From Brachionus manjavacas (taxonomy: Eukaryota; Rotifera; Eurotatoria; Ploima; Brachionidae): a stretch of 64,000 bases of DNA. Numbering within the stretch: the first letter of the stretch is position 1; every line of letters starts with the position of its first letter. Below, piece by piece: positions 15,041 to 64,000 of this stretch. The stretch is taken from contig JAHQIY010000039.1 of assembly GCA_019054805.1 (NCBI GenBank), positions 282,210-346,209 on the forward strand, in the 5' to 3' direction. A program made the position numbers and the translations under genes. Under the pieces are notes generated by a model. The model was not told the origin of the DNA. It saw only the letters and a program-made list of their open reading frames with translations, and searched no databases.

Positions 15041-15083
15041 TTTCTTTTAGAAAATTATCTTAAAATAACATTTTTTCCTCTTA

Positions 15084-16196: not shown

Positions 16197-17525
16197 GAAA
16201 ATTAAAAGACAGGAACTATAAAAACTTCGTATTAGCAAAAAACCCATTTTTTGACGTTTTTCAAAAAGGTTTTTTGCAATGAATTTTTCAAATTATGGAA
16301 AACCGAAGTTACCACTAGATAGATCTTGAAATTTTCTTGACTTTGGCTTTTACAGTTCAAAAAAAGGTCAAAGATTCGAAAAGTTATGCGCATGCGAAAC
16401 TTGCAAGTGATTACCAATAACTGAGTTTTCAAATCACTGCAGAATGGTCAATTTTTTAGCTACGATAATAGTTAATAGCTCAAATTCAAGAGCGCAAAAA
16501 GTTCTACATGATACAATTTACAGGAGTCCAAAAAGTTAAAAGGACAAGAAATTAGGCGACTTCGAAAAAGAGCAAAAAACCCATTTTTTGACGTTTTTCA
16601 AAAAGGTTTTTTGCAATGAATTTTTCAAATTATGGAAAACCGAAGTTACCACTAGATAGATCTTGAAATTTTCTTGACTTTGGCTTTTTCAGATTAAAAA
16701 AAAATAAAAGATTCGAAAAGTAATGCGCATGCGAAACTTGCAAGTGATTACCAATCACTGAGTTTTCAAATCACTGCAGAATGGTCAATTTTTTAGCTAC
16801 GATAATAGTTAATAGCTCAAATTCAAGAGCGCAAAAAGTTCTACATGATACAATTAACAGGTGTCCAAAAAATTAAAAAGACAAGAAATTAGGCGACTTC
16901 GAAAAAGAGCAAAAAACCCATTTTTTGACGTTTTTCAAAAAGGTTTTTTGCAATGAATTTTTCAAATTATGGAAAACCGAAGTTACCACTAGATAGATCT
17001 TGAAATTTTCTTGACTTTGGCTTTTACAGATCAAAAAAAGGTCAAAGATTCGAAAAGTTATGCGCATGCGAAACTTGCAAGTGATTACCAATAACTGAGT
17101 TTTCAAATCACTGCAGAATGGTCAATTTTTTAGCTACGATAATGATTAATAGCTGAAATTCAAGAGCGCAAAAAGTTCTACATGATACAATTTACAGAAG
17201 TCCAAAAAATTAAAAGTACAAGAATTTAGGCGACTTCGAAAAAGAGCAAAAAAAACATTTTTTGACGTTTTTCAAAATGGTTTTTTGCAATGAATTTTTA
17301 AAATTATTGAAACCGAAGTTACCACTAGATAGATCTTGAAATTTTCCTGACTTTGGTTTTACAGATCAAAAAAAGGTCAAAGATTCGAAAAGTTATGCGC
17401 ATGCGAAACTTGCAAGTGATTACCAATCACTGAGTTTTCAAATCACTGCAGAATGGTCAATTTTTTAGCTACGATAATAGTTAATAGCTCAAATTCAAGA
17501 GCGCAAAAAGTTCTACATGATACAA
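16197..17525 (+). repeat. Diverged left-edge monomers of the satellite
   Basis: The first four units carry more private changes than internal ones. Examples are GTTAATAG for GATTAATAG (near 16467, 16806, 17479), TTTTTCAGATTAAAAAAAAATA near 16688, AACAGGTGTCC near 16856, AGCTGAAATTC near 17152, and an eight-A run with ACATTTTTT near 17247. Two of the four have CCAATCACTG in place of CCAATAACTG. This is the usual pattern at array borders, where unequal exchange is less effective. Confidence 0.85.
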
Positions 17526-17581
17526 TTTACAGGAGTCCAAAAAGTTAAAAGGACAAGAAATTAGGCGACTTCGAAAAAGAG

Positions 17582-17622
17582 CAAAAAACCCATTTTTTGA
17601 CGTTTTTCAAAAAGGTTTTTTG
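17582..17622. repeat. Two-stem hairpin in each monomer (example)
   Basis: The outer stem CAAAAAACC pairs with GGTTTTTTG (9 bp). The inner stem TTTTTGA pairs with TCAAAAA (7 bp) around the loop CGTTTT. The only unpaired interruption is a CAT bulge on the left side. The whole structure spans 41 bases and recurs in almost every unit. Confidence 0.75.
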
Positions 17623-17747
17623 CAATGAATTTTTCAAATTATGGAAAACCGAAGTTACCACTAGATAGATCTTGAAATTTTCTTGACTTTGGCTTTTACA
17701 GATCAAAAAAAGGTCAAAGATTCGAAAAGTTATGCGCATGCGAAACT

Positions 17748-17787
17748 TGCAAGTGATTACCAATAACTGAGTTTTCAAATCACTGCA
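17748..17787. repeat. Second dyad in each monomer (example)
   Basis: TGC-A-AGTGATT pairs with AATCACT-GCA: 10 bp with one bulged A and a 19-base loop. Inside the loop, the near-copy AATAACT lies three bases from AGTGATT. In some monomers it is AATCACT, making a tight alternative hairpin. Confidence 0.6.
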
Positions 17788-19229
17788 GAATGGTCAATTT
17801 TTTAGCTACGATAATGATTAATAGCTCAAATTCAAGAGCGCAAAAAGTTCTACATGATACAATTTACAGGAGTCCAAAAAGTTAAAAGGACAAGAAATTA
17901 GGCGACTTCGAAAAAGAGCAAAAAACCCATTTTTTGACGTTTTTCAAAAAGGTTTTTTGCAATGAATTTTTCAAATTATGGAAAACCGAAGTTAACACTA
18001 GATAGATCTTGAAATTTTCTTGACTTTGGCTTTTACAGATCAAATAAAGGTCAAAGATTCGAAAAGTTATGCGCATGCGAAACTTGCAAGTGATTACCAA
18101 TAACTGAGTTTTCAAATCACTGCAGAATGGTCAATTTTTTAGCTACGATAATGATTAATAGCTCAAATTCAAGAGCGCAAAAAGTTCTACATGATACAAT
18201 TTACAATTTTCCAAAAAGTTAAAAGGACAAGAAATTAGGCGACTTCGAAAAAGAGCAAAAAACCCATTTTTTGACGTTTTTCAAAAAGGTTTTTTGCAAT
18301 GAATTTTTCAAATTATGGAAAACCGAAGTTACCACTAGATAGATCTTGAAATTTTCTTGACTTTGGCTTTTACAGATCAAAAAAAGGTCAAAGATTCGAA
18401 AAGTTATGCGCATGCGAAACTTGCAAGTGATTACCAATAACTGAGTTTTCAAATCACTGCAGAATGGTCAATTTTTTAGCTACGATAATGATTAATAGCT
18501 CAAATTCAAGAGCGCAAAAAGTTCTACATGATACAATTTACAGGAGTCCAAAAAGTTAAAAGGACAAGAAATTAGGCGACTTCGAAAAAGAGCAAAAAAC
18601 CCATTTTTTGACGTTTTTCAAAAAGGTTTTTTGCAATGAATTTTTCAAATTATGGAAAACCGAAGTTACCACTAGATAGATCTTGAAATTTTCTTGACTT
18701 TGGCTTTTACAGATCAAAAAAAGGTCAAAGATTCGAAAAGTTATGCGCATGCGAAACTTGCAAGTGATTACCAATAACTGAGTTTTCAAATCACTGCAGA
18801 ATGGTCAATTTTTTAGCTACGATAATGATTAATAGCTCAAATTCAAGAGCGCAAAAAGTTCTACATGATACAATTTACAGGAGTCCAAAAAGTTAAAAGG
18901 ACAAGAAATTAGGCGACTTCGAAAAAGAGCAAAAAACCCATTTTTTGACGTTTTTCAAAAAGGTTTTTTGCAATGAATTTTTCAAATTATGGAAAACCGA
19001 AGTTACCACTAGATAGATCTTGAAATTTTCTTGACTTTGGCTTTTACAGATCAAAAAAAGGTCAAAGATTCGAAAAGTTATGCGCATGCGAAACTTGCAA
19101 GTGATTACCAATAACTGAGTTTTCAAATCACTGCAGAATGGTCAATTTTTTAGCTACGATAATGATTAATAGCTCAAATTCAAGAGCGCAAAAAGTTCTA
19201 CATGATACAATTTACAGGAGTCCAAAAAG

Positions 19230-20573
19230 TTAAAAGGACAAGAAATTAGGCGACTTCGAAAAAGAGCAAAAAACCCATTTTTTGACGTTTTTCAAAAAGG
19301 TTTTTTGCAATGAATTTTTCAAATTATGGAAAACCGAAGTTACCACTAGATAGATCTTGAAATTTTCTTGACTTTGGCTTTTACAGATCAAAATAGGTCA
19401 AAGATTCGAAAAGTAATGCGCATGCGAAACTTGCAAGTGATTACCAATAACTGAGTTTTCAAATCACTGCAGAATGGTCAATTTTTTAGCTACGATAATG
19501 ATTAATAGCTCAAATTCAAGAGCGCAAAAAGTTCTACATGATACAATTTACAGGAGTCCAAAAAGTTAAAAGGACAAGAAATTAGGCGACTTCGAAAAAG
19601 AGCAAAAAACCCATTTTTTGACGTTTTTCAAAAAGGTTTTTGCAATGAATTTTTCAAATTATGGAAAACCGAAGTTACCACTAGATAGATCTTGAAATTT
19701 TCTTGACTTTGGCTTTTACAGATCAAAAAAAGGTCAAAGATTCGAAAAGTTATGCGCATGCGAAACTTGCAAGTGATTACCAATAACTGAGTTTTCAAAT
19801 CACTGCAGAATGGTCAATTTTTTAGCTACGATAATGATTAATAGCTCAAATTCAAGAGCGCAAAAAGTTCTACATGATACAATTTACAGGAGTCCAAAAA
19901 GTTAAAAGGACAAGAAATTAGGCGACTTCGAAAAAGAGCAAAAAACCCATTTTTTGACGTTTTTCAAAAAGGTTTTTTGCAATGAATTTTTCAAATTATG
20001 GAAAACCGAAGTTACCACTAGATAGATCTTGAAATTTTCTTGACTTTGGCTTTTACAGATCAAAATAGGTCAAAGATTCGAAAAGTTATGCGCATGCGAA
20101 ACTTGCAAGTGATTACCAATAACTGAGTTTTCAAATCACTGCAGAATGGTCAATTTTTTAGCTACGATAATGATTAATAGCTCAAATTCAAGAGCGCAAA
20201 AAGTTCTACATGATACAATTTACAGGAGTCCAAAAAGTTAAAAGGACAAGAAATTAGGCGACTTCGAAAAAGAGCAAAAAACCCATTTTTTGACGTTTTT
20301 CAAAAAGGTTTTTGCAATGAATTTTTCAAATTATGGAAAACCGAAGTTACCACTAGATAGATCTTGAAATTTTCTTGACTTTGGCTTTTACAGATCAAAA
20401 AAAGGTCAAAGATTCGAAAAGTTATGCGCATGCGAAACTTGCAAGTGATTACCAATAACTGAGTTTTCAAATCACTGCAGAATGGTCAATTTTTTAGCTA
20501 CGATAATGATTAATAGCTCAAATTCAAGAGCGCAAAAAGTTCTACATGATACAATTTACAGGAGTCCAAAAAG
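19230..20573 (+). repeat. Local two-monomer higher-order repeat
   Basis: The pair 19230-19901 and the pair 19902-20573 are each 672 bases. In both pairs the first monomer has the AAAATAGG variant and the second the shortened GGTTTTTGCAATG run. The main difference I see is AAGTAATG versus AAGTTATG. This points to a recent duplication of a dimer. Confidence 0.7.
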
Positions 20574-23500
20574 TTAAAAGGACAAGAAATTAGGCGACTT
20601 CGAAAAAGAGCAAAAAACCCATTTTTTGACGTTTTTCAAAAAGGTTTTTTGCAATGAATTTTTCAAATTATGGAAAACCGAAGTTACCACTAGATAGATC
20701 TTGAAATTTTCTTGACTTTGGCTTTTACAGATCAAAAAAAGGTCAAAGATTCGAAAAGTAATGCGCATGCGAAACTTGCAAGTGATTACCAATAACTGAG
20801 TTTTCAAATCACTGCAGAATGGTCAATTTTTTAGCTACGATAATGATTAATAGCTCAAATTCAAGAGCGCAAAAAGTTCTACATGATACAATTTACAGGA
20901 GTCCAAAAAGTTAAAAGGACAAGAAATTAGGCGACTTCGAAAAAGAGCAAAAAACCCATTTTTTGACGTTTTTCAAAAAGGTTTTTTGCAATGAATTTTT
21001 CAAATTATGGAAAACCGAAGTTACCACTAGATAGATCTTGAAATTTTCTTGACTTTGGCTTTTACAGATCAAAATAGGTCAAAGATTCGAAAAGTTATGC
21101 GCATGCGAAACTTGCAAGTGATTACCAATAACTGAGTTTTCAAATCACTGCAGAATGGTCAATTTTTTAGCTACGATAATGATTAATAGCTCAAATTCAA
21201 GAGCGCAAAAAGTTCTACATGATACAATTTACAGGAGTCCAAAAAGTTAAAAGGACAAGAAATTAGGCGACTTCGAAAAAGAGCAAAAAACCCATTTTTT
21301 GACGTTTTTCAAAAAGGTTTTTTGCAATGAATTTTTCAAATTATGGAAAACCGAAGTTACCACTAGATAGATCTTGAAATTTTCTTGACTTTGGCTTTTA
21401 CAGATCAAAAAAAGGTCAAAGATTCGAAAAGTTATGCGCATGCGAAACTTGCAAGTGATTACCAATAACTGAGTTTTCAAATCACTGCAGAATGGTCAAT
21501 TTTTTAGCTACGATAATGATTAATAGCTCAAATTCAAGAGCGCAAAAAGTTCTACATGATACAATTTACAGGAGTCCAAAAAGTTAAAAGGACAAGAAAT
21601 TAGGCGACTTCGAAAAAGAGCAAAAAACCCATTTTTTGACGTTTTTCAAAAAGGTTTTTTGCAATGAATTTTTCAAATTATGGAAAACCGAAGTTACCAC
21701 TAGATAGATCTTGAAATTTTCTTGACTTTGGCTTTTACAGATCAAAAAAAGGTCAAAGATTCGAAAAGTTATGCGCATGCGAAACTTGCAAGTGATTACC
21801 AATAACTGAGTTTTCAAATCACTGCAGAATGGTCAATTTTTTAGCTACGATAATGATTAATAGCTCAAATTCAAGAGCGCAAAAAGTTCTACATGATACA
21901 ATTTACAGGAGTCCAAAAAGTTAAAAGGACAAGAAATTAGGCGACTTCGAAAAAGAGCAAAAAACCCATTTTTTGACGTTTTTCAAAAAGGTTTTTTGCA
22001 ATGAATTTTTCAAATTATGGAAAACCGAAGTTACCACTAGATAGATCTTGAAATTTTCTTGACTTTGGCTTTTACAGATCAAAAAAAGGTCAAAGATTCG
22101 AAAAGTTATGCGCATGCGAAACTTGCAAGTGATTACCAATAACTGAGTTTTCAAATCACTGCAGAATGGTCAATTTTTTAGCTACGATAATGATTAATAG
22201 CTCAAATTCAAGAGCGCAAAAAGTTCTACATGATACAATTTACAGGAGTCCAAAAAGTTAAAAGGACAAGAAATTAGGCGACTTCGAAAAAGAGCAAAAA
22301 ACCCATTTTTTGACGTTTTTCAAAAAGGTTTTTTGCAATGAATTTTTCAAATTATGGAAAACCGAAGTTACCACTAGATAGATCTTGAAATTTTCTTGAC
22401 TTTGGCTTTTACAGATCAAAAAAAGGTCAAAGATTCGAAAAGTTATGCGCATGCGAAACTTGCAAGTGATTACCAATAACTGAGTTTTCAAATCACTGCA
22501 GAATGGTCAATTTTTTAGCTACGATAATGATTAATAGCTCAAATTCAAGAGCGCAAAAAGTTCTACATGATACAATTTACAGGAGTCCAAAAAGTTAAAA
22601 GGACAAGAAATTAGGCGACTTCGAAAAAGAGCAAAAAACCCATTTTTTGACGTTTTTCAAAAAGGTTTTTTGCAATGAATTTTTCAAATTATGGAAAACC
22701 GAAGTTACCACTAGATAGATCTTGAAATTTTCTTGACTTTGGCTTTTACAGATCAAAAAAAGGTCAAAGATTCGAAAAGTTATGCGCATGCGAAACTTGC
22801 AAGTGATTACCAATAACTGAGTTTTCAAATCACTGCAGAATGGTCAATTTTTTAGCTACGATAATGATTAATAGCTCAAATTCAAGAGCGCAAAAAGTTC
22901 TACATGATACAATTTACAGGAGTCCAAAAAGTTAAAAGGACAAGAAATTAGGCGACTTCGAAAAAGAGCAAAAAACCCATTTTTTGACGTTTTTCAAAAA
23001 GGTTTTTTGCAATGAATTTTTCAAATTATGGAAAACCGAAGTTACCACTAGATAGATCTTGAAATTTTCTTGACTTTGGCTTTTACAGATCAAAAAAAGG
23101 TCAAAGATTCGAAAAGTAATGCGCATGCGAAACTTGCAAGTGATTACCAATAACTGAGTTTTCAAATCACTGCAGAATGGTCAATTTTTTAGCTACGATA
23201 ATGATTAATAGCTCAAATTCAAGAGCGCAAAAAGTTCTACATGATACAATTTACAGGAGTCCAAAAAGTTAAAAGGACAAGAAATTAGGCGACTTCGAAA
23301 AAGAGCAAAAAACCCATTTTTTGACGTTTTTCAAAAAGGTTTTTTGCAATGAATTTTTCAAATTATGGAAAACCGAAGTTACCACTAGATAGATCTTGAA
23401 ATTTTCTTGACTTTGGCTTTTACAGATCAAAAAAAGGTCAAAGATTCGAAAAGTTATGCGCATGCGAAACTTGCAAGTGATTACCAATAACTGAGTTTTC

Positions 23501-26500
23501 AAATCACTGCAGAATGGTCAATTTTTTAGCTACGATAATGATTAATAGCTCAAATTCAAGAGCGCAAAAAGTTCTACATGATACAATTTACAGGAGTCCA
23601 AAAAGTTAAAAGGACAAGAAATTAGGCGACTTCGAAAAAGAGCAAAAAACCCATTTTTTGACGTTTTTCAAAAAGGTTTTTTGCAATGAATTTTTCAAAT
23701 TATGGAAAACCGAAGTTACCACTAGATAGATCTTGAAATTTTCTTGACTTTGGCTTTTACAGATCAAAATAGGTCAAAGATTCGAAAAGTTATGCGCATG
23801 CGAAACTTGCAAGTGATTACCAATAACTGAGTTTTCAAATCACTGCAGAATGGTCAATTTTTTAGCTACGATAATGATTAATAGCTCAAATTCAAGAGCG
23901 CAAAAAGTTCTACATGATACAATTTACAGGAGTCCAAAAAGTTAAAAGGACAAGAAATTAGGCGACTTCGAAAAAGAGCAAAAAACCCATTTTTTGACGT
24001 TTTTCAAAAAGGTTTTTTGCAATGAATTTTTCAAATTATGGAAAACCGAAGTTACCACTAGATAGATCTTGAAATTTTCTTGACTTTGGCTTTTACAGAT
24101 CAAAATAGGTCAAAGATTCGAAAAGTTATGCGCATGCGAAACTTGCAAGTGATTACCAATAACTGAGTTTTCAAATCACTGCAGAATGGTCAATTTTTTA
24201 GCTACGATAATGATTAATAGCTCAAATTCAAGAGCGCAAAAAGTTCTACATGATACAATTTACAGGAGTCCAAAAAGTTAAAAGGACAAGAAATTAGGCG
24301 ACTTCGAAAAAGAGCAAAAAACCCATTTTTTGACGTTTTTCAAAAAGGTTTTTTGCAATGAATTTTTCAAATTATGGAAAACCGAAGTTACCACTAGATA
24401 GATCTTGAAATTTTCTTGACTTTGGCTTTTACAGATCAAAAAAAGGTCAAAGATTCGAAAAGTTATGCGCATGCGAAACTTGCAAGTGATTACCAATAAC
24501 TGAGTTTTCAAATCACTGCAGAATGGTCAATTTTTTAGCTACGATAATGATTAATAGCTCAAATTCAAGAGCGCAAAAAGTTCTACATGATACAATTTAC
24601 AGGAGTCCAAAAAGTTAAAAGGACAAGAAATTAGGCGACTTCGAAAAAGAGCAAAAAACCCATTTTTTGACGTTTTTCAAAAAGGTTTTTTGCAATGAAT
24701 TTTTCAAATTATGGAAAACCGAAGTTACCACTAGATAGATCTTGAAATTTTCTTGACTTTGGCTTTTACAGATCAAAAAAAGGTCAAAGATTCGAAAAGT
24801 TATGCGCATGCGAAACTTGCAAGTGATTACCAATAACTGAGTTTTCAAATCACTGCAGAATGGTCAATTTTTTAGCTACGATAATGATTAATAGCTCAAA
24901 TTCAAGAGCGCAAAAAGTTCTACATGATACAATTTACAGGAGTCCAAAAAGTTAAAAGGACAAGAAATTAGGCGACTTCGAAAAAGAGCAAAAAACCCAT
25001 TTTTTGACGTTTTTCAAAAAGGTTTTTTGCAATGAATTTTTCAAATTATGGAAAACCGAAGTTACCACTAGATAGATCTTGAAATTTTCTTGACTTTGGC
25101 TTTTACAGATCAAAAAAGGTCAAAGATTCGAAAAGTTATGCGCATGCGAAACTTGCAAGTGATTACCAATAACTGAGTTTTCAAATCACTGCAGAATGGT
25201 CAATTTTTTAGCTACGATAATGATTAATAGCTCAAATTCAAGAGCGCAAAAAGTTCTACATGATACAATTTACAGGAGTCCAAAAAGTTAAAAGGACAAG
25301 AAATTAGGCGACTTCGAAAAAGAGCAAAAAACCCATTTTTTGACGTTTTTCAAAAAGGTTTTTTGCAATGAATTTTTCAAATTATGGAAAACCGAAGTTA
25401 CCACTAGATAGATCTTGAAATTTTCTTGACTTTGGCTTTTACAGATCAAAAAAAGGTCAAAGATTCGAAAAGTTATGCGCATGCGAAACTTGCAAGTGAT
25501 TACCAATAACTGAGTTTTCAAATCACTGCAGAATGGTCAATTTTTTAGCTACGATAATGATTAATAGCTCAAATTCAAGAGCGCAAAAAGTTCTACATGA
25601 TACAATTTACAGGAGTCCAAAAAGTTAAAAGGACAAGAAATTAGGCGACTTCGAAAAAGAGCAAAAAACCCATTTTTTGACGTTTTTCAAAAAGGTTTTT
25701 TGCAATGAATTTTTCAAATTATGGAAAACCGAAGTTACCACTAGATAGATCTTGAAATTTTCTTGACTTTGGCTTTTACAGATCAAAAAAAGGTCAAAGA
25801 TTCGAAAAGTTATGCGCATGCGAAACTTGCAAGTGATTACCAATAACTGAGTTTTCAAATCACTGCAGAATGGTCAATTTTTTAGCTACGATAATGATTA
25901 ATAGCTCAAATTCAAGAGCGCAAAAAGTTCTACATGATACAATTTACAGGAGTCCAAAAAGTTAAAAGGACAAGAAATTAGGCGACTTCGAAAAAGAGCA
26001 AAAAACCCATTTTTTGACGTTTTTCAAAAAGGTTTTTTGCAATGAATTTTTCAAATTATGGAAAACCGAAGTTACCACTAGATAGATCTTGAAATTTTCT
26101 TGACTTTGGCTTTTACAGATCAAAAAAAGGTCAAAGATTCGAAAAGTTATGCGCATGCGAAACTTGCAAGTGATTACCAATAACTGAGTTTTCAAATCAC
26201 TGCAGAATGGTCAATTTTTTAGCTACGATAATGATTAATAGCTCAAATTCAAGAGCGCAAAAAGTTCTACATGATACAATTTACAGGAGTCCAAAAAATT
26301 TAAAGGACAAGAAATTAGGCGACTTCGAAAAAGAGCAAAAAACCCATTTTTTGACGTTTTTCAAAAAGGTTTTTTGCAATGAATTTTTCAAATTATGGAA
26401 AACCGAAGTTACCACTAGATAGATCTTGAAATTTTCTTGACTTTGGCTTTTACAGATCAAAAAAAGTCAAAGATTCGAAAAGTTATGCGCATGCGAAACT

Positions 26501-29500
26501 TGCAAGTGATTACCAATAACTGAGTTTTCAAATCACTGCAGAATGGTCAATTTTTTAGCTACGATAATGATTAATAGCTCAAATTCAAGAGCGCAAAAAG
26601 TTCTACATGATACAATTTACAGGAGTCCAAAAAGTTAAAAGGACAAGAAATTAGGCGACTTCGAAAAAGAGCAAAAAACCCATTTTTTGACGTTTTTCAA
26701 AAAGGTTTTTTGCAATGAATTTTTCAAATTATGGAAAACCGAAGTTACCACTAGATAGATCTTGAAATTTTCTTGACTTTGGCTTTTACAGATCAAAAAA
26801 AGGTCAAAGATTCGAAAAGTTATGCGCATGCGAAACTTGCAAGTGATTACCAATAACTGAGTTTTCAAATCACTGCAGAATGGTCAATTTTTTAGCTACG
26901 ATAATGATTAATAGCTCAAATTCAAGAGCGCAAAAAGTTCTACATGATACAATTTACAGGAGTCCAAAAAGTTAAAAGGACAAGAAATTAGGCGACTTCG
27001 AAAAAGAGCAAAAAACCCATTTTTTGACGTTTTTCAAAAAGGTTTTTTGCAATGAATTTTTCAAATTATGGAAAACCGAAGTTACCACTAGATAGATCTT
27101 GAAATTTTCTTGACTTTGGCTTTTACAGATCAAAAAAAGGTCAAAGATTCGAAAAGTTATGCGCATGCGAAACTTGCAAGTGATTACCAATAACTGAGTT
27201 TTCAAATCACTGCAGAATGGTCAATTTTTTAGCTACGATAATGATTAATAGCTCAAATTCAAGAGCGCAAAAAGTTCTACATGATACAATTTACAGGAGT
27301 CCAAAAAGTTAAAAGGACAAGAAATTAGGCGACTTCGAAAAAGAGCAAAAAACCCATTTTTTGACGTTTTTCAAAAAGGTTTTTTGCAATGAATTTTTCA
27401 AATTATGGAAAACCGAAGTTACCACTAGATAGATCTTGAAATTTTCTTGACTTTGGCTTTTACAGATCAAAAAAAGGTCAAAGATTCGAAAAGTTATGCG
27501 CATGCGAAACTTGCAAGTGATTACCAATAACTGAGTTTTCAAATCACTGCAGAATGGTCAATTTTTTAGCTACGATAATGATTAATAGCTCAAATTCAAG
27601 AGCGCAAAAAGTTCTACATGATACAATTTACAGGAGTCCAAAAAGTTAAAAGGACAAGAAATTAGGCGACTTCGAAAAAGAGCAAAAAACCCATTTTTTG
27701 ACGTTTTTCAAAAAGGTTTTTTGCAATGAATTTTTCAAATTATGGAAAACCGAAGTTACCACTAGATAGATCTTGAAATTTTCTTGACTTTGGCTTTTAC
27801 AGATCAAAATAGGTCAAAGATTCGAAAAGTTATGCGCATGCGAAACTTGCAAGTGATTACCAATAACTGAGTTTTCAAATCACTGCAGAATGGTCAATTT
27901 TTTAGCTACGATAATGATTAATAGCTCAAATTCAAGAGCGCAAAAAGTTCTACATGATACAATTTACAGGAGTCCAAAAAGTTAAAAGGACAAGAAATTA
28001 GGCGACTTCGAAAAAGAGCAAAAAACCCATTTTTTGACGTTTTTCAAAAAGGTTTTTTGCAATGAATTTTTCAAATTATGGAAAACCGAAGTTACCACTA
28101 GATAGATCTTGAAATTTTCTTGACTTTGGCTTTTACAGATCAAAAAAAGGTCAAAGATTCGAAAAGTTATGCGCATGCGAAACTTGCAAGTGATTACCAA
28201 TAACTGAGTTTTCAAATCACTGCAGAATGGTCAATTTTTTAGCTACGATAATGATTAATAGCTCAAATTCAAGAGCGCAAAAAGTTCTACATGATACAAT
28301 TTACAGGAGTCCAAAAAGTTAAAAGGACAAGAAATTAGGCGACTTCGAAAAAGAGCAAAAAACCCATTTTTTGACGTTTTTCAAAAAGGTTTTTTGCAAT
28401 GAATTTTTCAAATTATGGAAAACCGAAGTTACCACTAGATAGATCTTGAAATTTTCTTGACTTTGGCTTTTACAGATCAAAAAAAGGTCAAAGATTCGAA
28501 AAGTTATGCGCATGCGAAACTTGCAAGTGATTACCAATAACTGAGTTTTCAAATCACTGCAGAATGGTCAATTTTTTAGCTACGATAATGATTAATAGCT
28601 CAAATTCAAGAGCGCAAAAAGTTCTACATGATACAATTTACAGGAGTCCAAAAAGTTAAAAGGACAAGAAATTAGGCGACTTCGAAAAAGAGCAAAAAAC
28701 CCATTTTTTGACGTTTTTCAAAAAGGTTTTTTGCAATGAATTTTTCAAATTATGGAAAACCGAAGTTACCACTAGATAGATCTTGAAATTTTCTTGACTT
28801 TGGCTTTTACAGATCAAAAAAAGGTCAAAGATTCGAAAAGTTATGCGCATGCGAAACTTGCAAGTGATTACCAATAACTGAGTTTTCAAATCACTGCAGA
28901 ATGGTCAATTTTTTAGCTACGATAATGATTAATAGCTCAAATTCAAGAGCGCAAAAAGTTCTACATGATACAATTTACAGGAGTCCAAAAAGTTAAAAGG
29001 ACAAGAAATTAGGCGACTTCGAAAAAGAGCAAAAAACCCATTTTTTGACGTTTTTCAAAAAGGTTTTTTGCAATGAATTTTTCAAATTATGGAAAACCGA
29101 AGTTACCACTAGATAGATCTTGAAATTTTCTTGACTTTGGCTTTTACAGATCAAAATAGGTCAAAGATTCGAAAAGTAATGCGCATGCGAAACTTGCAAG
29201 TGATTACCAATAACTGAGTTTTCAAATCACTGCAGAATGGTCAATTTTTTAGCTACGATAATGATTAATAGCTCAAATTCAAGAACGCAAAAAGTTCTAC
29301 ATGATACAATTTACAGGAGTCCAAAAAAATTTAAAGGACAAGAAATTAGGCGACTTCGAAAAAGAGCAAAAAACCCATTTTTTGACGTTTTTCAAAAAGG
29401 TTTTTTGCAATGAATTTTTCAAATTATGGAAAACCGAAGTTACCACTAGATAGATCTTGAAATTTTCTTGACTTTGGCTTTTACAGATCAAAAAAAGGTC

Positions 29501-51800: not shown

Positions 51801-54800
51801 GCTACGATAATGATTAATAGCTCAAATTCAAGAGCGCAAAAAGTTCTACATGATACAATTTACAGGAGTCCAAAAAGTTAAAAGGACAAGAAATTAGGCG
51901 ACTTCGAAAAAGAGCAAAAAACCCATTTTTTGACGTTTTTCAAAAAGGTTTTTTGCAATGAATTTTTCAAATTATGGAAAACCGAAGTTACCACTAGATA
52001 GATCTTGAAATTTTCTTGACTTTGGCTTTTACAGATCAAAAAAAGGTCAAAGATTCGAAAAGTTATGCGCATGCGAAACTTGCAAGTGATTACCAATAAC
52101 TGAGTTTTCAAATCACTGCAGAATGGTCAATTTTTTAGCTACGATAATGATTAATAGCTCAAATTCAAGAGCGCAAAAAGTTCTACATGATACAATTTAC
52201 AGGAGTCCAAAAAGTTAAAAGGACAAGAAATTAGGCGACTTCGAAAAAGAGCAAAAAACCCATTTTTTGACGTTTTTCAAAAAGGTTTTTTGCAATGAAT
52301 TTTTCAAATTATGGAAAACCGAAGTTACCACTAGATAGATCTTGAAATTTTCTTGACTTTGGCTTTTACAGATCAAAAAAAGGTCAAAGATTCGAAAAGT
52401 TATGCGCATGCGAAACTTGCAAGTGATTACCAATAACTGAGTTTTCAAATCACTGCAGAATGGTCAATTTTTTAGCTACGATAATGATTAATAGCTCAAA
52501 TTCAAGAGCGCAAAAAGTTCTACATGATACAATTTACAGGAGTCCAAAAAGTTAAAAGGACAAGAAATTAGGCGACTTCGAAAAAGAGCAAAAAACCCAT
52601 TTTTTGACGTTTTTCAAAAAGGTTTTTTGCAATGAATTTTTCAAATTATGGAAAACCGAAGTTACCACTAGATAGATCTTGAAATTTTCTTGACTTTGGC
52701 TTTTACAGATCAAAAAAAGGTCAAAGATTCGAAAAGTTATGCGCATGCGAAACTTGCAAGTGATTACCAATAACTGAGTTTTCAAATCACTGCAGAATGG
52801 TCAATTTTTTAGCTACGATAATGATTAATAGCTCAAATTCAAGAGCGCAAAAAGTTCTACATGATACAATTTACAGGAGTCCAAAAAGTTAAAAGGACAA
52901 GAAATTAGGCGACTTCGAAAAAGAGCAAAAAACCCATTTTTTGACGTTTTTCAAAAAGGTTTTTTGCAATGAATTTTTCAAATTATGGAAAACCGAAGTT
53001 ACCACTAGATAGATCTTGAAATTTTCTTGACTTTGGCTTTTACAGATCAAAAAAAGGTCAAAGATTCGAAAAGTTATGCGCATGCGAAACTTGCAAGTGA
53101 TTACCAATAACTGAGTTTTCAAATCACTGCAGAATGGTCAATTTTTTAGCTACGATAATGATTAATAGCTCAAATTCAAGAGCGCAAAAAGTTCTACATG
53201 ATACAATTTACAGGAGTCCAAAAAATTAAAAGGACAAGAAATTAGGCGACTTCGAAAAAGAGCAAAAAACCCATTTTTTGACGTTTTTCAAAAAGGTTTT
53301 TTGCAATGAATTTTTCAAATTATGGAAAACCGAAGTTACCACTAGATAGATCTTGAAATTTTCTTGACTTTGGCTTTTACAGATCAAAAAAAGGTCAAAG
53401 ATTCGAAAAGTTATGCGCATGCGAAACTTGCAAGTGATTACCAATAACTGAGTTTTCAAATCACTGCAGAATGGTCAATTTTTTAGCTACGATAATGATT
53501 AATAGCTCAAATTCAAGAGCGCAAAAAGTTCTACATGATACAATTTACAGGAGTCCAAAAAGTTAAAAGGACAAGAAATTAGGCGACTTCGAAAAAGAGC
53601 AAAAAACCCATTTTTTGACGTTTTTCAAAAAGGTTTTTTGCAATGAATTTTTCAAATTATGGAAAACCGAAGTTACCACTAGATAGATCTTGAAATTTTC
53701 TTGACTTTGGCTTTTACAGATCAAAATAGGTCAAAGATTCGAAAAGTTATGCGCATGCGAGACTTGCAAGTGATTACCAATAACTGAGTTTTCAAATCAC
53801 TGCAGAATGGTCAATTTTTTAGCTACGATAATGATTAATAGCTCAAATTCAAGAGCGCAAAAAGTTCTACATGATACAATTTACAGGAGTCCAAAAAGTT
53901 AAAAGGACAAGAAATTAGGCGACTTCGAAAAAGAGCAAAAAACCCATTTTTTGACGTTTTTCAAAAAGGTTTTTTGCAATGAATTTTTCAAATTATGGAA
54001 AACCGAAGTTACCACTAGATAGATCTTGAAATTTTCTTGACTTTGGCTTTTACAGATCAAAAAAAGGTCAAAGATTCGAAAAGTTATGCGCATGCGAAAC
54101 TTGCAAGTGATTACCAATAACTGAGTTTTCAAATCACTGCAGAATGGTCAATTTTTTAGCTACGATAATGATTAATAGCTCAAATTCAAGAGCGCAAAAA
54201 GTTCTACATGATACAATTTACAGGAGTCCAAAAAATTTAAAGGACAAGAAATTAGGCGACTTCGAAAAAGAGCAAAAAACCCATTTTTTGACGTTTTTCA
54301 AAAAGGTTTTTTGCAATGAATTTTTCAAATTATGGAAAACCGAAGTTACCACTAGATAGATCTTGAAATTTTCTTGACTTTGGCTTTTACAGATCAAAAT
54401 AGGTCAAAGATTCGAAAAGTTATGCGCATGCGAAACTTGCAAGTGATTACCAATAACTGAGTTTTCAAATCACTGCAGAATGGTCAATTTTTTAGCTACG
54501 ATAATGATTAATAGCTCAAATTCAAGAGCGCAAAAAGTTCTACATGATACAATTTACAGGAGTCCAAAAAGTTAAAAGGACAAGAAATTAGGCGACTTCG
54601 AAAAAGAGCAAAAAACCCATTTTTTGACGTTTTTCAAAAAGGTTTTTTGCAATGAATTTTTCAAATTATGGAAAACCGAAGTTACCACTAGATAGATCTT
54701 GAAATTTTCTTGACTTTGGCTTTTACAGATCAAAAAAAGGTCAAAGATTCGAAAAGTTATGCGCATGCGAAACTTGCAAGTGATTACCAATAACTGAGTT

Positions 54801-56246
54801 TTCAAATCACTGCAGAATGGTCAATTTTTTAGCTACGATAATGATTAATAGCTCAAATTCAAGAGCGCAAAAAGTTCTACATGATACAATTTACAGGAGT
54901 CCAAAAAATTAAAAGGACAAGAAATTAGGCGACTTCGAAAAAGAGCAAAAAACCCATTTTTTGACGTTTTTCAAAAAGGTTTTTTGCAATGAATTTTTCA
55001 AATTATGGAAAACCGAAGTTACCACTAGATAGATCTTGAAATTTTCTTGACTTTGGCTTTTACAGATCAAAAAAAGGTCAAAGATTCGAAAAGTTATGCG
55101 CATGCGAAACTTGCAAGTGATTACCAATAACTGAGTTTTCAAATCACTGCAGAATGGTCAATTTTTTAGCTACGATAATGATTAATAGCTCAAATTCAAG
55201 AGCGCAAAAAGTTCTACATGATACAATTTACAGGAGTCCAAAAAGTTAAAAGGACAAGAAATTAGGCGACTTCGAAAAAGAGCAAAAAACCCATTTTTTG
55301 ACGTTTTTCAAAAAGGTTTTGTGCAATGAATTTTTCAAATTATGGAAAACCGAAGTTACCACTAGATAGATCTTGAAATTTTCTTGACTTTGGCTTTTAC
55401 AGATCAAAAAAAGGTCAAAGATTCGAAAAGTTATGCGCATGCGAAACTTGCAAGTGATTACCAATAACTGAGTTTTCAAATCACTGCAGAATGGTCAATT
55501 TTTTAGCTACGATAATGATTAATAGCTCAAATTCAAGAGCGCAAAAAGTTCTACATGATACAATTTACAGGAGTCCAAAAAGTTAAAAGGACAAGAAATT
55601 AGGCGACTTCGAAAAAGAGCAAAAAACCCATTTTTTGACGTTTTTCAAAAAGGTTTTTTGCAATGAATTTTTCAAATTATGGAAAACCGAAGTTACCACT
55701 AGATAGATCTTGAAATTTTCTTGACTTTGGCTTTTACAGATCAAAAAAAGGTCAAAGATTCGAAAAGTTATGCGCATGCGAAACTTGCAAGTGATTACCA
55801 ATAACTGAGTTTTCAAATCACTGCAGAATGGTCAATTTTTTAGCTACGATAATGATTAATAGCTCAAATTCAAGAGCGCAAAAAGTTCTACATGATACAA
55901 TTTACAGGAGTCCAAAAAATTTAAAGGACAAGAAATTAGGCGACTTCGAAAAAGAGCAAAAAACCCATTTTTTGACGTTTTTCAAAAAGGTTTTTTGCAA
56001 TGAATTTTTCAAATTATGGAAAACCGAAGTTACCACTAGATAGATCTTGAAATTTTCTTGACTTTGGCTTTTACAGATCAAAAAAAGGTCAAAGATTCGA
56101 AAAGTTATGCGCATGCGAAACTTGCAAGTGATTACCAATAACTGAGTTTTCAAATCACTGCAGAATGGTCAATTTTTTAGCTACGATAATGATTAATAGC
56201 TCAAATTCAAGAGCGCAAAAAGTTCTACATGATACAATTTACAGGA

Positions 56247-57263
56247 GTCCAAAAAGTTAAAAGGACAAGAAATTAGGCGACTTCGAAAAAGAGCAAAAAA
56301 CCCATTTTTTGACGTTTTTCAAAAAGGTTTTTGCAATGAATTTTTCAAATTATGGAAAACCGAAGTTACCACTAGATAGATCTTGAAATTTTCTTGACTT
56401 TGGCTTTTACAGATCAAAAAAGGTCAAAGATTCGAAAAGTTATGCGCATGCGAAACTTGCAAGTGATTACCAATAACTGAGTTTTCAAATCACTGCAGAA
56501 TGGTCAATTTTTTAGCTACGATAATGATTAATAGCTCAAATTCAAGAGCGCAAAAAGTTCTACATGATACAATTTACAGGAGTCCAAAAATTTAAAAGGA
56601 CAAGAAATTAGGCGACTTCGAAAAAGAGCAAAAAACCCATTTTTTGACGTTTTTCAAAAAGGTTTTTGCAATGAATTTTTCAAATTATGGAAAACCGAAG
56701 TTACCACTAGATAGATCTTGAAATTTTCTTGACTCTTGGCTTTTACAGATCAAAAAAGGTCAAAGATTCGAAAAGTTATGCGCATGCGAGACTTGCAAGT
56801 GATTACCAATAACTGAGTTTTCAAATCACTGCAGAATGGTCAATTTTTTAGCTACGATAATGATTAATAGCTCAAATTCAAGAGCGCAAAAAGTTCTACA
56901 TGATACAATTTACAGGAGTCCAAAAAGTTAAAAGGACAAGAAATTAGGCGACTTCGAAAAAGAGCAAAAAACCCATTTTTTGACGTTTTTCAAAAAGGTT
57001 TTTTGCAATGAATTTTTCAAATTATGGAAAACCGAAGTTACCACTAGATAGATCTTGAAATTTTCTTGACTTTGGCTCTTGCAGATCAAAAAAGGTCAAA
57101 GATTCGAAAAGTTATGCGCATGCGAGACTTGCAAGTGATTACCAATAACTGAGTTTTCAAATCACTGCAGAATGGTCAATTTTTTAGCTACGATAATGAT
57201 TAATAGCTCAAATTCAAGAGCGCAAAAAGTTCTACATGATACAATTTACAGGAGTCCAAAAAG
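56247..57263 (+). repeat. Internal patch of more diverged monomers
   Basis: Three successive units carry unusual changes: shortened GGTTTTTGC, CCAAAAATTTAAAAGG, GACTCTTGGC near 56732, GGCTCTTGCAG near 57074, and GCGAGACTTG near 56787 and 57122. The GGCTCTTGCAG variant returns in the unit starting at 60296, which also has AGCAATAAAAACATT. Confidence 0.65.
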
Positions 57264-58273
57264 TTAAAAGGACAAGAAATTAGGCGACTTCGAAAAAGAG
57301 CAAAAAACCCATTTTTTGACGTTTTTCAAAAAGGTTTTTTGCAATGAATTTTTCAAATTATGGAAAACCGAAGTTACCACTAGATAGATCTTGAAATTTT
57401 CTTGACTTTGGCTTTTACAGATCAAAAAAAGGTCAAAGATTCGAAAAGTTATGCGCATGCGAAACTTGCAAGTGATTACCAATAACTGAGTTTTCAAATC
57501 ACTGCAGAATGGTCAATTTTTTAGCTACGATAATGATTAATAGCTCAAATTCAAGAGCGCAAAAAGTTCTACATGATACAATTTACAGGAGTCCAAAAAG
57601 TTAAAAGGACAAGAAATTAGGCGACTTCGAAAAAGAGCAAAAAACCCATTTTTTGACGTTTTTCAAAAAGGTTTTTTGCAATGAATTTTTCAAATTATGG
57701 AAAACCGAAGTTACCACTAGATAGATCTTGAAATTTTCTTGACTTTGGCTTTTACAGATCAAAATAGGTCAAAGATTCGAAAAGTTATGCGCATGCGAAA
57801 CTTGCAAGTGATTACCAATAACTGAGTTTTCAAATCACTGCAGAATGGTCAATTTTTTAGCTACGATAATGATTAATAGCTCAAATTCAAGAGCGCAAAA
57901 AGTTCTACATGATACAATTTACAGGAGTCCAAAAAGTTAAAAGGACAAGAAATTAGGCGACTTCGAAAAAGAGCAAAAAACCCATTTTTTGACGTTTTTC
58001 AAAAAGGTTTTTTGCAATGAATTTTTCAAATTATGGAAAACCGAAGTTACCACTAGATAGATCTTGAAATTTTCTTGACTTTGGCTTTTACAGATCAAAA
58101 AAAGGTCAAAGATTCGAAAAGTTATGCGCATGCGAAACTTGCAAGTGATTACCAATAACTGAGTTTTCAAATCACTGCAGAATGGTCAATTTTTTAGCTA
58201 CGATAATGATTAATAGCTCAAATTCAAGAGCGCAAAAAGTTCTACATGATACAATTTACAGGAGTCCAAAAAG

Positions 58274-59284
58274 TTAAAAGGACAAGAAATTAGGCGACTT
58301 CGAAAAAGAGCAAAAAACCCATTTTTTGACGTTTTTCAAAAAGGTTTTTTGCAATGAATTTTTCAAATTATGGAAAACCGAAGTTACCACTAGATAGATC
58401 TTGAAATTTTCTTGACTTTGGCTTTTACAGATCAAAAAAAGGTCAAAGATTCGAAAAGTTATGCGCATGCGAGACTTGCAAGTGATTACCAATAACTGAG
58501 TTTTCAAATCACTGCAGAATGGTCAATTTTTTAGCTACGATAATGATTAATAGCTCAAATTCAAGAGCGCAAAAAGTTCTACATGATACAATTTACAGGA
58601 GTCCAAAAAGTTAAAAGGACAAGAAATTAGGCGACTTCGAAAAAGAGCAAAAAACCCATTTTTTGACGTTTTTCAAAAAGGTTTTTTGCAATGAATTTTT
58701 CAAATTATGGAAAACCGAAGTTACCACTAGATAGATCTTGAAATTTTCTTGACTTTGGCTTTTACAGATCAAAAAAAGGTCAAAGATTCGAAAAGTTATG
58801 CGCATGCGAGACTTGCAAGTGATTACCAATAACTGAGTTTTCAAATCACTGCAGAATGGTCAATTTTTTAGCTACGATAATGATTAATAGCTCAAATTCA
58901 AGAGCGCAAAAAGTTCTACATGATACAATTTACAGGAGTCCAAAAAGTTAAAAGGACAAGAAATTAGGCGACTTCGAAAAAGAGCAAAAAACCCATTTTT
59001 TGACGTTTTTCAAAAAGGTTTTTTGCAATGAATTTTTCAAATTATGGAAAACCGAAGTTACCACTAGATAGATCTTGAAATTTTCTTGACTTTGGCTTTT
59101 ACAGATCAAAAAAAGGTCAAAGATTCGAAAAGTTATGCGCATGCGAGACTTGCAAGTGATTACCAATAACTGAGTTTTCAAATCACTGCAGAATGGTCAA
59201 TTTTTTAGCTACGATAATGATTAATAGCTCAAATTCAAGAGCGCAAAAAGTTCTACATGATACAATTTACAGGAGTCCAAAAAG
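58274..59284 (+). repeat. Three consecutive identical-looking GCGAGACTTG monomers
   Basis: Units starting at 58274, 58611 and 58948 all share the GCGAGACTTG change, which is rare elsewhere (single cases near 33899 and 53757). It indicates a recent local amplification. Confidence 0.65.
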
Positions 59285-62200
59285 TTAAAAGGACAAGAAA
59301 TTAGGCGACTTCGAAAAAGAGCAAAAAACCCATTTTTTGACGTTTTTCAAAAAGGTTTTTTGCAATGAATTTTTCAAATTATGGAAAACCGAAGTTACCA
59401 CTAGATAGATCTTGAAATTTTCTTGACTTTGGCTTTTACAGATCAAAAAAAGGTCAAAGATTCGAAAAGTTATGCGCATGCGAAACTTGCAAGTGATTAC
59501 CAATAACTGAGTTTTCAAATCACTGCAGAATGGTCAATTTTTTAGCTACGATAATGATTAATAGCTCAAATTCAAGAGCGCAAAAAGTTCTACATGATAC
59601 AATTTACAGGAGTCCAAAAAGTTAAAAGGACAAGAAATTAGGCGACTTCGAAAAAGAGCAAAAAACCCATTTTTTGACGTTTTTCAAAAAGGTTTTTTGC
59701 AATGAATTTTTCAAATTATGGAAAACCGAAGTTACCACTAGATAGATCTTGAAATTTTCTTGACTTTGGCTTTTACAGATCAAAAAAAGGTCAAAGATTC
59801 GAAAAGTTATGCGCATGCGAAACTTGCAAGTGATTACCAATAACTGAGTTTTCAAATCACTGCAGAATGGTCAATTTTTTAGCTACGATAATGATTAATA
59901 GCTCAAATTCAAGAGCGCAAAAAGTTCTACATGATACAATTTACAGGAGTCCAAAAAATTTAAAGGACAAGAAATTAGGCGACTTCGAAAAAGAGCAAAA
60001 AACCCATTTTTTGACGTTTTTCAAAAAGGTTTTTTGCAATGAATTTTTCAAATTATGGAAAACCGAAGTTACCACTAGATAGATCTTGAAATTTTCTTGA
60101 CTTTGGCTTTTACAGATCAAAAAAAGGTCAAAGATTCGAAAAGTTATGCGCATGCGAAACTTGCAAGTGATTACCAATAACTGAGTTTTCAAATCACTGC
60201 AGAATGGTCAATTTTTTAGCTACGATAATGATTAATAGCTCAAATTCAAGAGCGCAAAAAGTTCTACATGATACAATTTACAGGAGTCCAAAAAGTTAAA
60301 AGGACAAGAAATTAGGCGACTTCGAAAAAGAGCAATAAAAACATTTTTTGACGTTTTTCAAAAAGGTTTTTTGCAATGAATTTTTCAAATTATGGAAAAC
60401 CGAAGTTACCACTAGATAGATCTTGAAATTTTCTTGACTTTGGCTCTTGCAGATCAAAAAAAGGTCAAAGATTCGAAAAGTTATGCGCATGCGAGACTTG
60501 CAAGTGATTACCAATAACTGAGTTTTCAAATCACTGCAGAATGGTCAATTTTTTAGCTACGATAATGATTAATAGCTCAAATTCAAGAGCGCAAAAAGTT
60601 CTACATGATACAATTTACAGGAGTCCAAAAAATTTAAAGGACAAGAAATTAGGCGACTTCGAAAAAGAGCAAAAAACCCATTTTTTGACGTTTTTCAAAA
60701 AGGTTTTTTGCAATGAATTTTTCAAATTATGGAAAACCGAAGTTACCACTAGATAGATCTTGAAATTTTCTTGACTTTGGCTTTTACAGATCAAAATAGG
60801 TCAAAGATTCGAAAAGTTATGCGCATGCGAAACTTGCAAGTGATTACCAATAACTGAGTTTTCAAATCACTGCAGAATGGTCAATTTTTTAGCTACGATA
60901 ATGATTAATAGCTCAAATTCAAGAGCGCAAAAAGTTCTACATGATACAATTTACAGGAGTCCAAAAAGTTAAAAGGACAAGAAATTAGGCGACTTCGAAA
61001 AAGAGCAAAAAACCCATTTTTTGACGTTTTTCAAAAAGGTTTTTTGCAATGAATTTTTCAAATTATGGAAAACCGAAGTTACCACTAGATAGATCTTGAA
61101 ATTTTCTTGACTTTGGCTTTTACAGATCAAAAAAAGGTCAAAGATTCGAAAAGTTATGCGCATGCGAAACTTGCAAGTGATTACCAATAACTGAGTTTTC
61201 AAATCACTGCAGAATGGTCAATTTTTTAGCTACGATAATGATTAATAGCTCAAATTCAAGAGCGCAAAAAGTTCTACATGATACAATTTACAGGAGTCCA
61301 AAAAATTTAAAGGACAAGAAATTAGGCGACTTCGAAAAAGAGCAAAAAACCCATTTTTTGACGTTTTTCAAAAAGGTTTTTTGCAATGAATTTTTCAAAT
61401 TATGGAAAACCGAAGTTACCACTAGATAGATCTTGAAATTTTCTTGACTTTGGCTTTTACAGATCAAAAAAAGGTCAAAGATTCGAAAAGTTATGCGCAT
61501 GCGAAACTTGCAAGTGATTACCAATAACTGAGTTTTCAAATCACTGCAGAATGGTCAATTTTTTAGCTACGATAATGATTAATAGCTCAAATTCAAGAGC
61601 GCAAAAAGTTCTACATGATACAATTTACAGGAGTCCAAAAAGTTAAAAGGACAAGAAATTAGGCGACTTCGAAAAAGAGCAAAAAACCCATTTTTTGACG
61701 TTTTTCAAAAAGGTTTTTTGCAATGAATTTTTCAAATTATGGAAAACCGAAGTTACCACTAGATAGATCTTGAAATTTTCTTGACTTTGGCTTTTACAGA
61801 TCAAAATAGGTCAAAGATTCGAAAAGTTATGCGCATGCGAAACTTGCAAGTGATTACCAATAACTGAGTTTTCAAATCACTGCAGAATGGTCAATTTTTT
61901 AGCTACGATAATGATTAATAGCTCAAATTCAAGAGCGCAAAAAGTTCTACATGATACAATTTACAGGAGTCCAAAAAGTTAAAAGGACAAGAAATTAGGC
62001 GACTTCGAAAAAGAGCAAAAAACCCATTTTTTGACGTTTTTCAAAAAGGTTTTTTGCAATGAATTTTTCAAATTATGGAAAACCGAAGTTACCACTAGAT
62101 AGATCTTGAAATTTTCTTGACTTTGGCTTTTACAGATCAAAAAAAGGTCAAAGATTCGAAAAGTTATGCGCATGCGAAACTTGCAAGTGATTACCAATAA

Positions 62201-64000
62201 CTGAGTTTTCAAATCACTGCAGAATGGTCAATTTTTTAGCTACGATAATGATTAATAGCTCAAATTCAAGAGCGCAAAAAGTTCTACATGATACAATTTA
62301 CAGGAGTCCAAAAAGTTAAAAGGACAAGAAATTAGGCGACTTCGAAAAAGAGCAAAAAACCCATTTTTTGACGTTTTTCAAAAAGGTTTTTTGCAATGAA
62401 TTTTTCAAATTATGGAAAACCGAAGTTACCACTAGATAGATCTTGAAATTTTCTTGACTTTGGCTTTTACAGATCAAAAAAAGGTCAAAGATTCGAAAAG
62501 TTATGCGCATGCGAAACTTGCAAGTGATTACCAATCACTGAGTTTTCAAATCACTGCAGAATGGTCAATTTTTTAGCTACGATAATGATTAATAGCTCAA
62601 ATTCAAGAGCGCAAAAAGTTCTACATGATACAATTTACAGGAGTCCAAAAAGTTAAAAGGACAAGAAATTAGGCGACTTCGAAAAAGAGCAAAAAACCCA
62701 TTTTTTGACGTTTTTCAAAAAGGTTTTTTGCAATGAATTTTTCAAATTATGGAAAACCGAAGTTACCACTAGATAGATCTTGAAATTTTCTTGACTTTGG
62801 CTTTTACAGATCAAAATAGGTCAAAGATTCGAAAAGTTATGCGCATGCGAAACTTGCAAGTGATTACCAATAACTGAGTTTTCAAATCACTGCAGAATGG
62901 TCAATTTTTTAGCTACGATAATGATTAATAGCTCAAATTCAAGAGCGCAAAAAGTTCTACATGATACAATTTACAGGAGTCCAAAAAATTAAAAGGACAA
63001 GAAATTAGGCGACTTCGAAAAAGAGCAAAAAACCCATTTTTTGACGTTTTTCAAATGGGTTTTTTGCAATGAATTTTTCAAATTATGGAAAACCGAAGTT
63101 ACCACTAGATAGATCTTGAAATTTTCTTGACTTTGGCTTTTACAGATCAAAAAAAGGTCAAAGATTCGAAAAGTTATGCGCATGCGAAACTTGCAAGTGA
63201 TTACCAATAACTGAGTTTTCAAATCACTGCAGAATGGTCAATTTTTTAGCTACGATAATGATTAATAGCTCAAATTCAAGAGCGCAAAAAGTTCTACATG
63301 ATACAATTTACAGGAGTCCAAAAAGTTAAAAGGACAAGAAATTAGGCGACTTCGAAAAAGAGCAAAAAACCCATTTTTTGACGTTTTTCAAAAAGGTTTT
63401 TTGCAATGAATTTTTCAAATTATGGAAAACCGAAGTTACCACTAGATAGATCTTGAAATTTTCTTGACTTTGGCTTTTACAGATCAAAAAAAGGTCAAAG
63501 ATTCGAAAAGTAATGCGCATGCGAAACTTGCAAGTGATTACCAATAACTGAGTTTTCAAATCACTGCAGAATGGTCAATTTTTTAGCTACGATAATGATT
63601 AATAGCTCAAATTCAAGAGCGCAAAAAGTTCTACATGATACAATTTACAGGAGTCCAAAAAGTTAAAAAGACAAGAAATTAGGCGACTTCGAAAAAGAGC
63701 AAAAAACCCATTTTTTGACGTTTTTCAAAAAGGTTTTTTGCAATGAATTTTTCAAATTATGGAAAACCGAAGTTACCACTAGATAGATCTTGAAATTTTC
63801 TTGACTTTGGCTTTTACAGATCAAAAAGGTCAAAGATTCGAAAAGTTATGCGCATGCGAGACTTGCAAGTGATTACCAATAACTGAGTTTTCAAATCACT
63901 GCAGAATGGTCAATTTTTTAGCTACGATAATGATTAATAGCTCAAATTCAAGAGCGCAAAAAGTTCTACATGATACAATTTACAGGAGTCCAAAAAATTA

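What the first reader, a model, noticed from the sequence alone, without database searches (positions are those of the whole stretch)
16197..64000. A 48 kb array of a 337-base satellite, probably undescribed
About 142 same-orientation copies with no interruption, continuing past the window edge. I do not recognise the unit from any known satellite. Long homogeneous arrays of one unit beside decayed LINEs are typical of centromeric or pericentromeric DNA, so this is a candidate for the main satellite of its host.
Basis: partly seen in the sequence, partly recalled or inferred. Interest (0 to 1): 0.75.

Follow-up and report, generated by a model that had tools for sequence, protein, structure and literature searches.

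The report
Rotifer genome-wide 337-base satellite DNA
This is a long run of one 337-letter DNA unit that also occurs at many other places in the genome of the rotifer Brachionus manjavacas; it is an ordinary kind of repeat (satellite DNA), but its spread over several sites of one chromosome bears on how rotifer chromosomes are pulled apart, which is not known.

Summary
It stops at 64000 because the contig stops there; its true length is unknown. The host is almost certainly the monogonont rotifer Brachionus manjavacas: two published guide targets and their four primers match exactly. The unit is a genome-wide satellite: 4104 core hits, about 1.38 Mb as a lower bound, and 38 of 118 examined contig ends, on 32 contigs; the next commonest end repeat has 8. 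Arrays differ (median identity 91%) and some carry locus-private variants, which link C24, C1 and C25 into one inferred scaffold with four arrays. So it is not simply one centromere per chromosome. Best reading: satellite blocks, probably heterochromatic; centromere role open. 'Undescribed' could not be tested against repeat libraries. New member of a known kind.

The parts
16234..64000 (+). Array of the 337-bp satellite unit, 141.9 copies, cut off by the end of the contig
16197..16233 (+). Decayed partial copy at the left edge
   Evidence: gapped alignment to the end of the unit; only 7 of 37 positions match without gaps
16407..18426 (+). First six complete units in the anchor phase, more diverged than the rest (mean 98.2% to the consensus against 99.65% for the other 135)
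14791..15019 (+). Isolated, older partial copy of the unit, 80% identical
16235..16277 (.). Imperfect dyad in the unit: 10-base arms GCAAAAAACC and GGTTTTTTGC, 23 bases apart; marginal (10 of 200 shuffles have an arm as long)
12860..13177 (-). Possible decayed non-LTR reverse-transcriptase fragment in the flank; not part of the satellite
   Evidence: RVT_1 E 0.046, below cut-off; the FxDD-like motif is my own reading

Best explanation
The array is one member of a non-coding satellite DNA family of Brachionus manjavacas. Shown: the family lies in arrays at many sites (satellite at ends of 32 contigs), the window array is nearly uniform inside, arrays differ between loci, and it is the commonest sequence found at contig ends. 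Inferred: it grows and is kept uniform within each locus by unequal exchange, gene conversion or replication-based amplification, with some spread between loci. Inferred: the arrays are packed as heterochromatin at inner and interstitial chromosome sites and have no function that depends on this sequence at most sites; whether any of them also serves in kinetochore attachment is open.
For: 4104 core hits with no hit of the reversed pattern; 38 of 118 contig ends; 99.42% mean pairwise identity in the window array, a more diverged left edge, no distance effect and no clear higher-order period; 23 of 46 array samples in one subfamily at 5% average distance, the others apart; a 27-base variant haplotype found only on C39 (9 of 9); two patterns whose 100 listed places each lie on just two contig ends in fitting orientation (one of those 200 is an isolated copy on C24); no frame longer than 82 codons between stops in the tandem unit.
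Against: No chromatin, read-depth or cytological data: heterochromatin is inferred. A core-histone gene cluster on C38 reaches to about 302 kb and the array starts between 308 and 312 kb, so genes come within about 10 kb of an array. Five contigs that run from telomere-like blocks to satellite would also fit a localised centromere. CpG is not depleted (ratio 1.04).
Confidence: 0.6

Rival explanations
1. It is the centromeric satellite proper: each chromosome has one localised kinetochore site on an array of this unit, without CenH3, and the extra arrays are inactive.
For: Five contigs (C6, C8, C14, C15, C19; 1.36-6.70 Mb) have telomere-like blocks near the start and satellite at the other end; it is the commonest assembly-breaking repeat. 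Chaetognaths, also gnathiferans, are reported to have localised centromeres without CenH3 (PMC12460157, section 5).
Against: Six contigs have it at both ends and one inferred scaffold carries four arrays. No CENP-B box within 3 mismatches. The same paper calls holocentromeres likely in the rotifer Adineta vaga.
Confidence: 0.18
2. Few-unit holocentric or polycentric chromosomes: several arrays of this satellite per chromosome all attach spindle fibres.
For: Four arrays on the inferred scaffold C24-C1-C25. CenH3 reported lost in Gnathifera and holocentromeres likely in Adineta vaga. A plant with 7 to 11 satellite-based centromere units per chromatid is known (PMC10264360, abstract). My searches found no CENP-C domain and identified no CenH3, but neither search can show absence.
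Against: Nothing here ties the arrays to kinetochores. Spacing is not shown to be even: 1.1, 12.1 and 0.9 Mb on the one scaffold.
Confidence: 0.09
3. Satellite-rich dispensable DNA as in Brachionus asplanchnoidis: arrays on B chromosomes or as copy-number-variable insertions.
For: A congener has megabase satellite arrays that vary among individuals (PMC8447722, passages).
Against: Here arrays flank the largest contigs (C1, C2, C3, C5, C6), so they are not confined to small dispensable pieces. Copy-number variation was not testable.
Confidence: 0.1
4. Assembly artefact: an over-expanded collapse of a short repeat.
For: The array ends exactly at the contig end; 60 of 141 units are identical.
Against: 36 different unit sequences in order, other variants at other loci, 32 contigs with satellite ends. 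Cut-off arrays point to under-assembly. Order and number of near-identical units may still be wrong.
Confidence: 0.03

Closest known systems
rotiSat satellites of Brachionus asplanchnoidis (PMC8447722, passages read)
   Same: Same genus; long satellite arrays; GC above the genome background.
   Different: rotiSat1 and rotiSat2 have 154- and 143-bp monomers and about 37% GC; here 337 bp and 32% GC. Sequences were not compared, since supplements could not be opened; monomer lengths of the other rotiSats were not seen.
Centromeric satellites such as human alpha satellite (recalled)
   Same: AT-rich tandem unit; 337 is close to twice a nucleosomal length.
   Different: No CENP-B box, no clear higher-order repeat, several arrays per inferred scaffold; CenH3 reported lost in Gnathifera.
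Chionographis japonica holocentromere satellites (PMC10264360, abstract)
   Same: Several satellite arrays on one chromosome.
   Different: 23- and 28-bp monomers, megabase units, CENH3-positive; none of the kinetochore features was tested here.

Membership tests
Satellite DNA | Long head-to-tail arrays of one non-coding unit | tested here: met
   141.9 copies; longest frame between stops 82 codons
Satellite DNA | Many copies at many loci | tested here: met
   4104 core hits; 38 of 118 contig ends on 32 contigs
Satellite DNA | Units more alike within an array than between arrays | tested here: met
   99.42% within the window array against a median of 91% between samples; a main subfamily is nevertheless shared by many loci at 95-99.7%
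Localised centromeric satellite | Carries kinetochore chromatin | not testable with these tools
   no ChIP, FISH or Hi-C; CenH3 reported lost in Gnathifera
Localised centromeric satellite | One site per chromosome | tested here: inconclusive
   six contigs with satellite at both ends and an inferred four-array scaffold speak against it for the family as a whole; one array per chromosome could still be special
Alpha-satellite-like centromeric satellite | CENP-B box | tested here: not met
   none within 3 mismatches on either strand (motif recalled)
Subtelomeric satellite | Lies next to telomere repeats | tested here: not met
   27 telomere-like hits on 8 contigs; in 5 of the 8 the satellite is at the opposite end, in the other 3 at no fetched end
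rotiSat families | Sequence identity to a named rotiSat | not tested
   consensus sequences are in supplements that could not be opened; two known monomer lengths (154, 143) differ

The most novel reading that the evidence does not exclude
In Brachionus manjavacas, a gnathiferan without CenH3, several 337-bp satellite arrays on each chromosome all serve as kinetochore sites: a few-unit holocentric or polycentric organisation built on one satellite and recruited without CenH3.
Probability: 0.09. Interest if true: 0.8.

Novelty: new member of a known kind. Interest (0 to 1): 0.4.

Why it matters
A 2025 study reports that CenH3 and most of its assembly genes were lost in Gnathifera, that chaetognaths keep localised centromeres and that the bdelloid Adineta vaga probably has holocentromeres (PMC12460157, section 5 read). 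The monogonont state is not given in that section. A mapped satellite with locus-private variants gives FISH probes, candidate sites and contig links for B. manjavacas, so that question can be tested. As a sequence it is an ordinary satellite.

Tried and rejected
Single-locus minisatellite: rejected by 4104 genome-wide hits. Subtelomeric satellite: disfavoured. Coding repeat: no long frame. Known RNA family: none at window 1-18000. Ancient dimer of a 168-bp half: ungapped self-identity at shift 168 is 0.39 against 0.28 in shuffles (0 of 1000 reach it; the maximum over all shifts is reached by 2 of 300 shuffles for the C39 unit and 0 of 300 for the grand consensus), but gapped half-to-half alignment is not significant (51 of 300 and 148 of 300): a weak hint only. 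Dyad: marginal (10 of 200 and 17 of 200 shuffles); its columns are only slightly more conserved than the rest (0.955 against 0.934). Higher-order repeat: best lag 12, reached by 9 of 200 permutations, not convincing. CENP-C: no match, but the fourteen control genomes of that search are prokaryotes as named and introns are not bridged, so this shows nothing alone. CenH3: 60 histone matches, of which I read one, a split H3 on C15 that looks like H3.3; not resolved. rDNA at the repeat shared by the start of C39 and seven other ends: two stretches of C44 and three ends gave no Rfam match. SSU rRNA search: not completed. One search was wasted on a mistyped variant (0 hits). It showed that my draft's statement that no rotifer centromere work was found was wrong and that a CENP-A experiment was a poor proposal. 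I therefore raised the novel case from 0.06 to 0.09 and interest from 0.35 to 0.4.
Full report
Observation. The tandem-repeat program reports one array at 16234-64000, period 337, 141.9 copies. An anchor motif recurs 142 times; the 141 spacings are 337 (89), 336 (46), 335 (5) and 338 (1). Among 141 complete units 36 sequences are distinct and 60 units are identical. Chance is no option at this length. A 229-bp copy at 80% identity lies at 14791-15019. The window is G000:C39:282210-346209 and the contig has 346,209 bases, so the array is cut by the contig end.

Inside the array. Without the first six complete units, mean pairwise identity is 99.42%; the first six average 98.2% to the consensus, the other 135 99.65%. 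Neighbouring units are no more alike than random pairs (51 of 200 permutations reach the value at lag 1), and no higher-order period is convincing (lag 12, reached by 9 of 200). This fits array-wide homogenisation with a decaying edge. Order and number of near-identical units depend on the assembly. The unit has 32% GC, a CpG ratio of 1.04, no CENP-B box within 3 mismatches and no frame above 82 codons between stops.

Host. G000 has 114.17 Mb in 61 contigs. A 2023 paper on gene editing in Brachionus manjavacas (PMC10395877, passages and section 14 read) lists two guide targets and four primers. Each target occurs once, exactly, in a search that allowed one mismatch, and each lies between its exact primer pair. 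The host is B. manjavacas or something nearly identical at those loci. The paper names assembly GCA_018683815.1; I did not verify that G000 is that record. The low GC agrees: monogonont assemblies in one survey have 24.95-31.14% GC (PMC11954553, passages), and the window flank is mostly 22-29%.

Genome-wide distribution. A 29-bp core with up to 3 mismatches hits 2051 times forward and 2053 reverse, reversed-pattern control 0; 100 of these places were listed. At 337 bp each this is 1.38 Mb or 1.2% of the assembly, a lower bound since diverged subfamilies escape the core. I fetched 117 of 122 contig ends, 300 bases each; three of them are masked; the window gives one more end; four were not fetched. 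38 of these 118 lie in the satellite, on 32 contigs; in one, C14's end, only 132 of 300 bases match. If breaks fell at random 1.4 would be expected, but assemblies break at repeats, so this shows only that the satellite is the leading breaker. The next shared end repeats cover 8, 6 and 5 of the 117. Read outward, 21 satellite ends run one way and 17 the other (my count from the strands), as expected if most broken arrays have two flanks; so about 20 arrays are broken. Satellite was found at every point sampled over the first 48 kb of C36 (not at 60 kb) and from 312 kb to the end of C38 (74 kb), and at 50 kb of the C23 start.

Subfamilies and links. Among 46 array samples, several from the same arrays, median identity is 91% and the minimum 71%. 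23 of the 46, the window array among them, fall in one subfamily at 5% average distance; the rest are apart. A 27-base haplotype of the window array occurs 9 times, all on C39; the single base change in it also occurs in C38 copies in another setting. A pattern from the C1 and C25 ends hits 198 times; the 100 listed places are C1:12084-12101 kb (44, forward) and C25:878-899 kb (56, reverse). A pattern from the C1 start and C24 end hits 224 times, all forward; of 100 listed, 89 are on the first 32 kb of C1 and 11 on C24, one of these an isolated copy at 891 kb. The unlisted 98 and 124 were not seen. Orientation fits the joins C24-end to C1-start (identity only 89.6%) and C1-end to C25-end (99.2%), and C36-end to C46-end (99.6%). 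Against easy joining, C7-end and the C23 start array are 98.3% alike but their orientations do not fit. If the two joins hold, the scaffold C24-C1-C25 carries four arrays. The listed C25 copies include 428-bp spacings, 7 of 55, probably 337 plus 91.

Position. Telomere-like blocks (TTAGGG with TTTAGGG) occur 27 times on eight contigs. Five of these, C6, C8, C14, C15 and C19, have blocks 13-66 kb from the start and satellite at the other end. That fits arms running from telomere to a satellite block. Against a purely central place, C1, C22, C23, C24, C25 and C36 have satellite at both ends. A histone-gene cluster on C38 reaches to about 302 kb and the array begins between 308 and 312 kb.

Centromere context. 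A 2025 paper on chaetognaths (PMC12460157, passages and section 5 read) reports that 12 of 20 genes of CenH3 chromatin assembly, CenH3 and CENP-T among them, were lost in Gnathifera, that chaetognaths have localised centromeres all the same, and that the bdelloid rotifer Adineta vaga probably has holocentromeres. A figure legend there shows a synteny plot of a species spelt Brachionus manjacavas. My own searches found no CENP-C domain and did not settle CenH3.

What it is and how it works. Satellite DNA: the three defining features tested were met. In order of support: amplification and homogenisation within loci (inferred from variant patterns); packing as heterochromatin (inferred, no data); kinetochore role at one or several arrays per chromosome (possible, untested).

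Known relatives. B. asplanchnoidis has abundant satellites (154 and 143 bp, about 37% GC) that vary in amount among individuals; four satellites there are shared with B. plicatilis (PMC8447722, passages). Sequences could not be compared. Ten paper searches returned no listing that names a 337-bp rotifer satellite; the library holds only openly licensed papers, no paper was read whole, and supplements were closed, so this does not prove novelty.

Verdict. Real, genome-wide and the leading satellite at contig ends of this assembly; ordinary in kind; of more than routine use because the centromeres of monogonont rotifers are an open matter.

Noticed in passing
L160 (G000:C21:120555-121901) and contig C21, 1.22 Mb: C21 looks bacterial: an intact 661-aa cytochrome oxidase subunit I (cyoB-like, name recalled) whose best 80 matches among bacterial genomes are 57-60% identical, from Chromobacterium, Pseudomonas and others. 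A divergent proteobacterium in the rotifer culture or host.
   Followed up: partly
Ends of contigs C40, C42, C43, C45, C55: GC of 0.39-0.50 against mostly 0.2-0.35 elsewhere; they look like bacterial, perhaps Vibrio, contamination (my impression, not tested).
   Followed up: no
L266 (C24:890750-891200): An isolated satellite copy of at least 373 bp at 82% identity lies about 144 kb before the C24 end array, so stray old copies exist outside the arrays.
   Followed up: partly
G000:C25:878-899 kb: Within the satellite array 7 of 55 listed spacings are 428 bp, that is 337 plus 91: a longer unit variant that has multiplied in that array.
   Followed up: partly
L044 (start of C39) and seven other contig ends: The start of the window's contig shares a repeat with ends of C18, C20, C33, C44 (both) and C51 (both). 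The C44 end holds a match to Rfam RAGATH-11, 97.5 bits; two stretches inside C44 and three of the ends gave no Rfam match. Nature unknown.
   Followed up: partly
C14 start, C18 end, C27 start, C28 end, C50 end: A repeat with GGGCTCCGCCCCGGACCCC and telomere-like stubs is shared by five ends; possibly telomere-associated.
   Followed up: no
G000 contigs C6, C8, C14, C15, C19, C30, C31, C52: Telomere-like blocks mix TTAGGG and TTTAGGG, and on several contigs lie tens of kilobases inside the contig end rather than at it.
   Followed up: partly
C17 start and C61 end: The two ends (with C5 end) share a repeat; reading them by eye they look like Helitron helicase frames; not tested with a family search.
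   Followed up: no
Contigs C58 and C59: Both are 56,391 bp long, which suggests a duplicated record or two haplotypes; the C59 start is masked.
   Followed up: no
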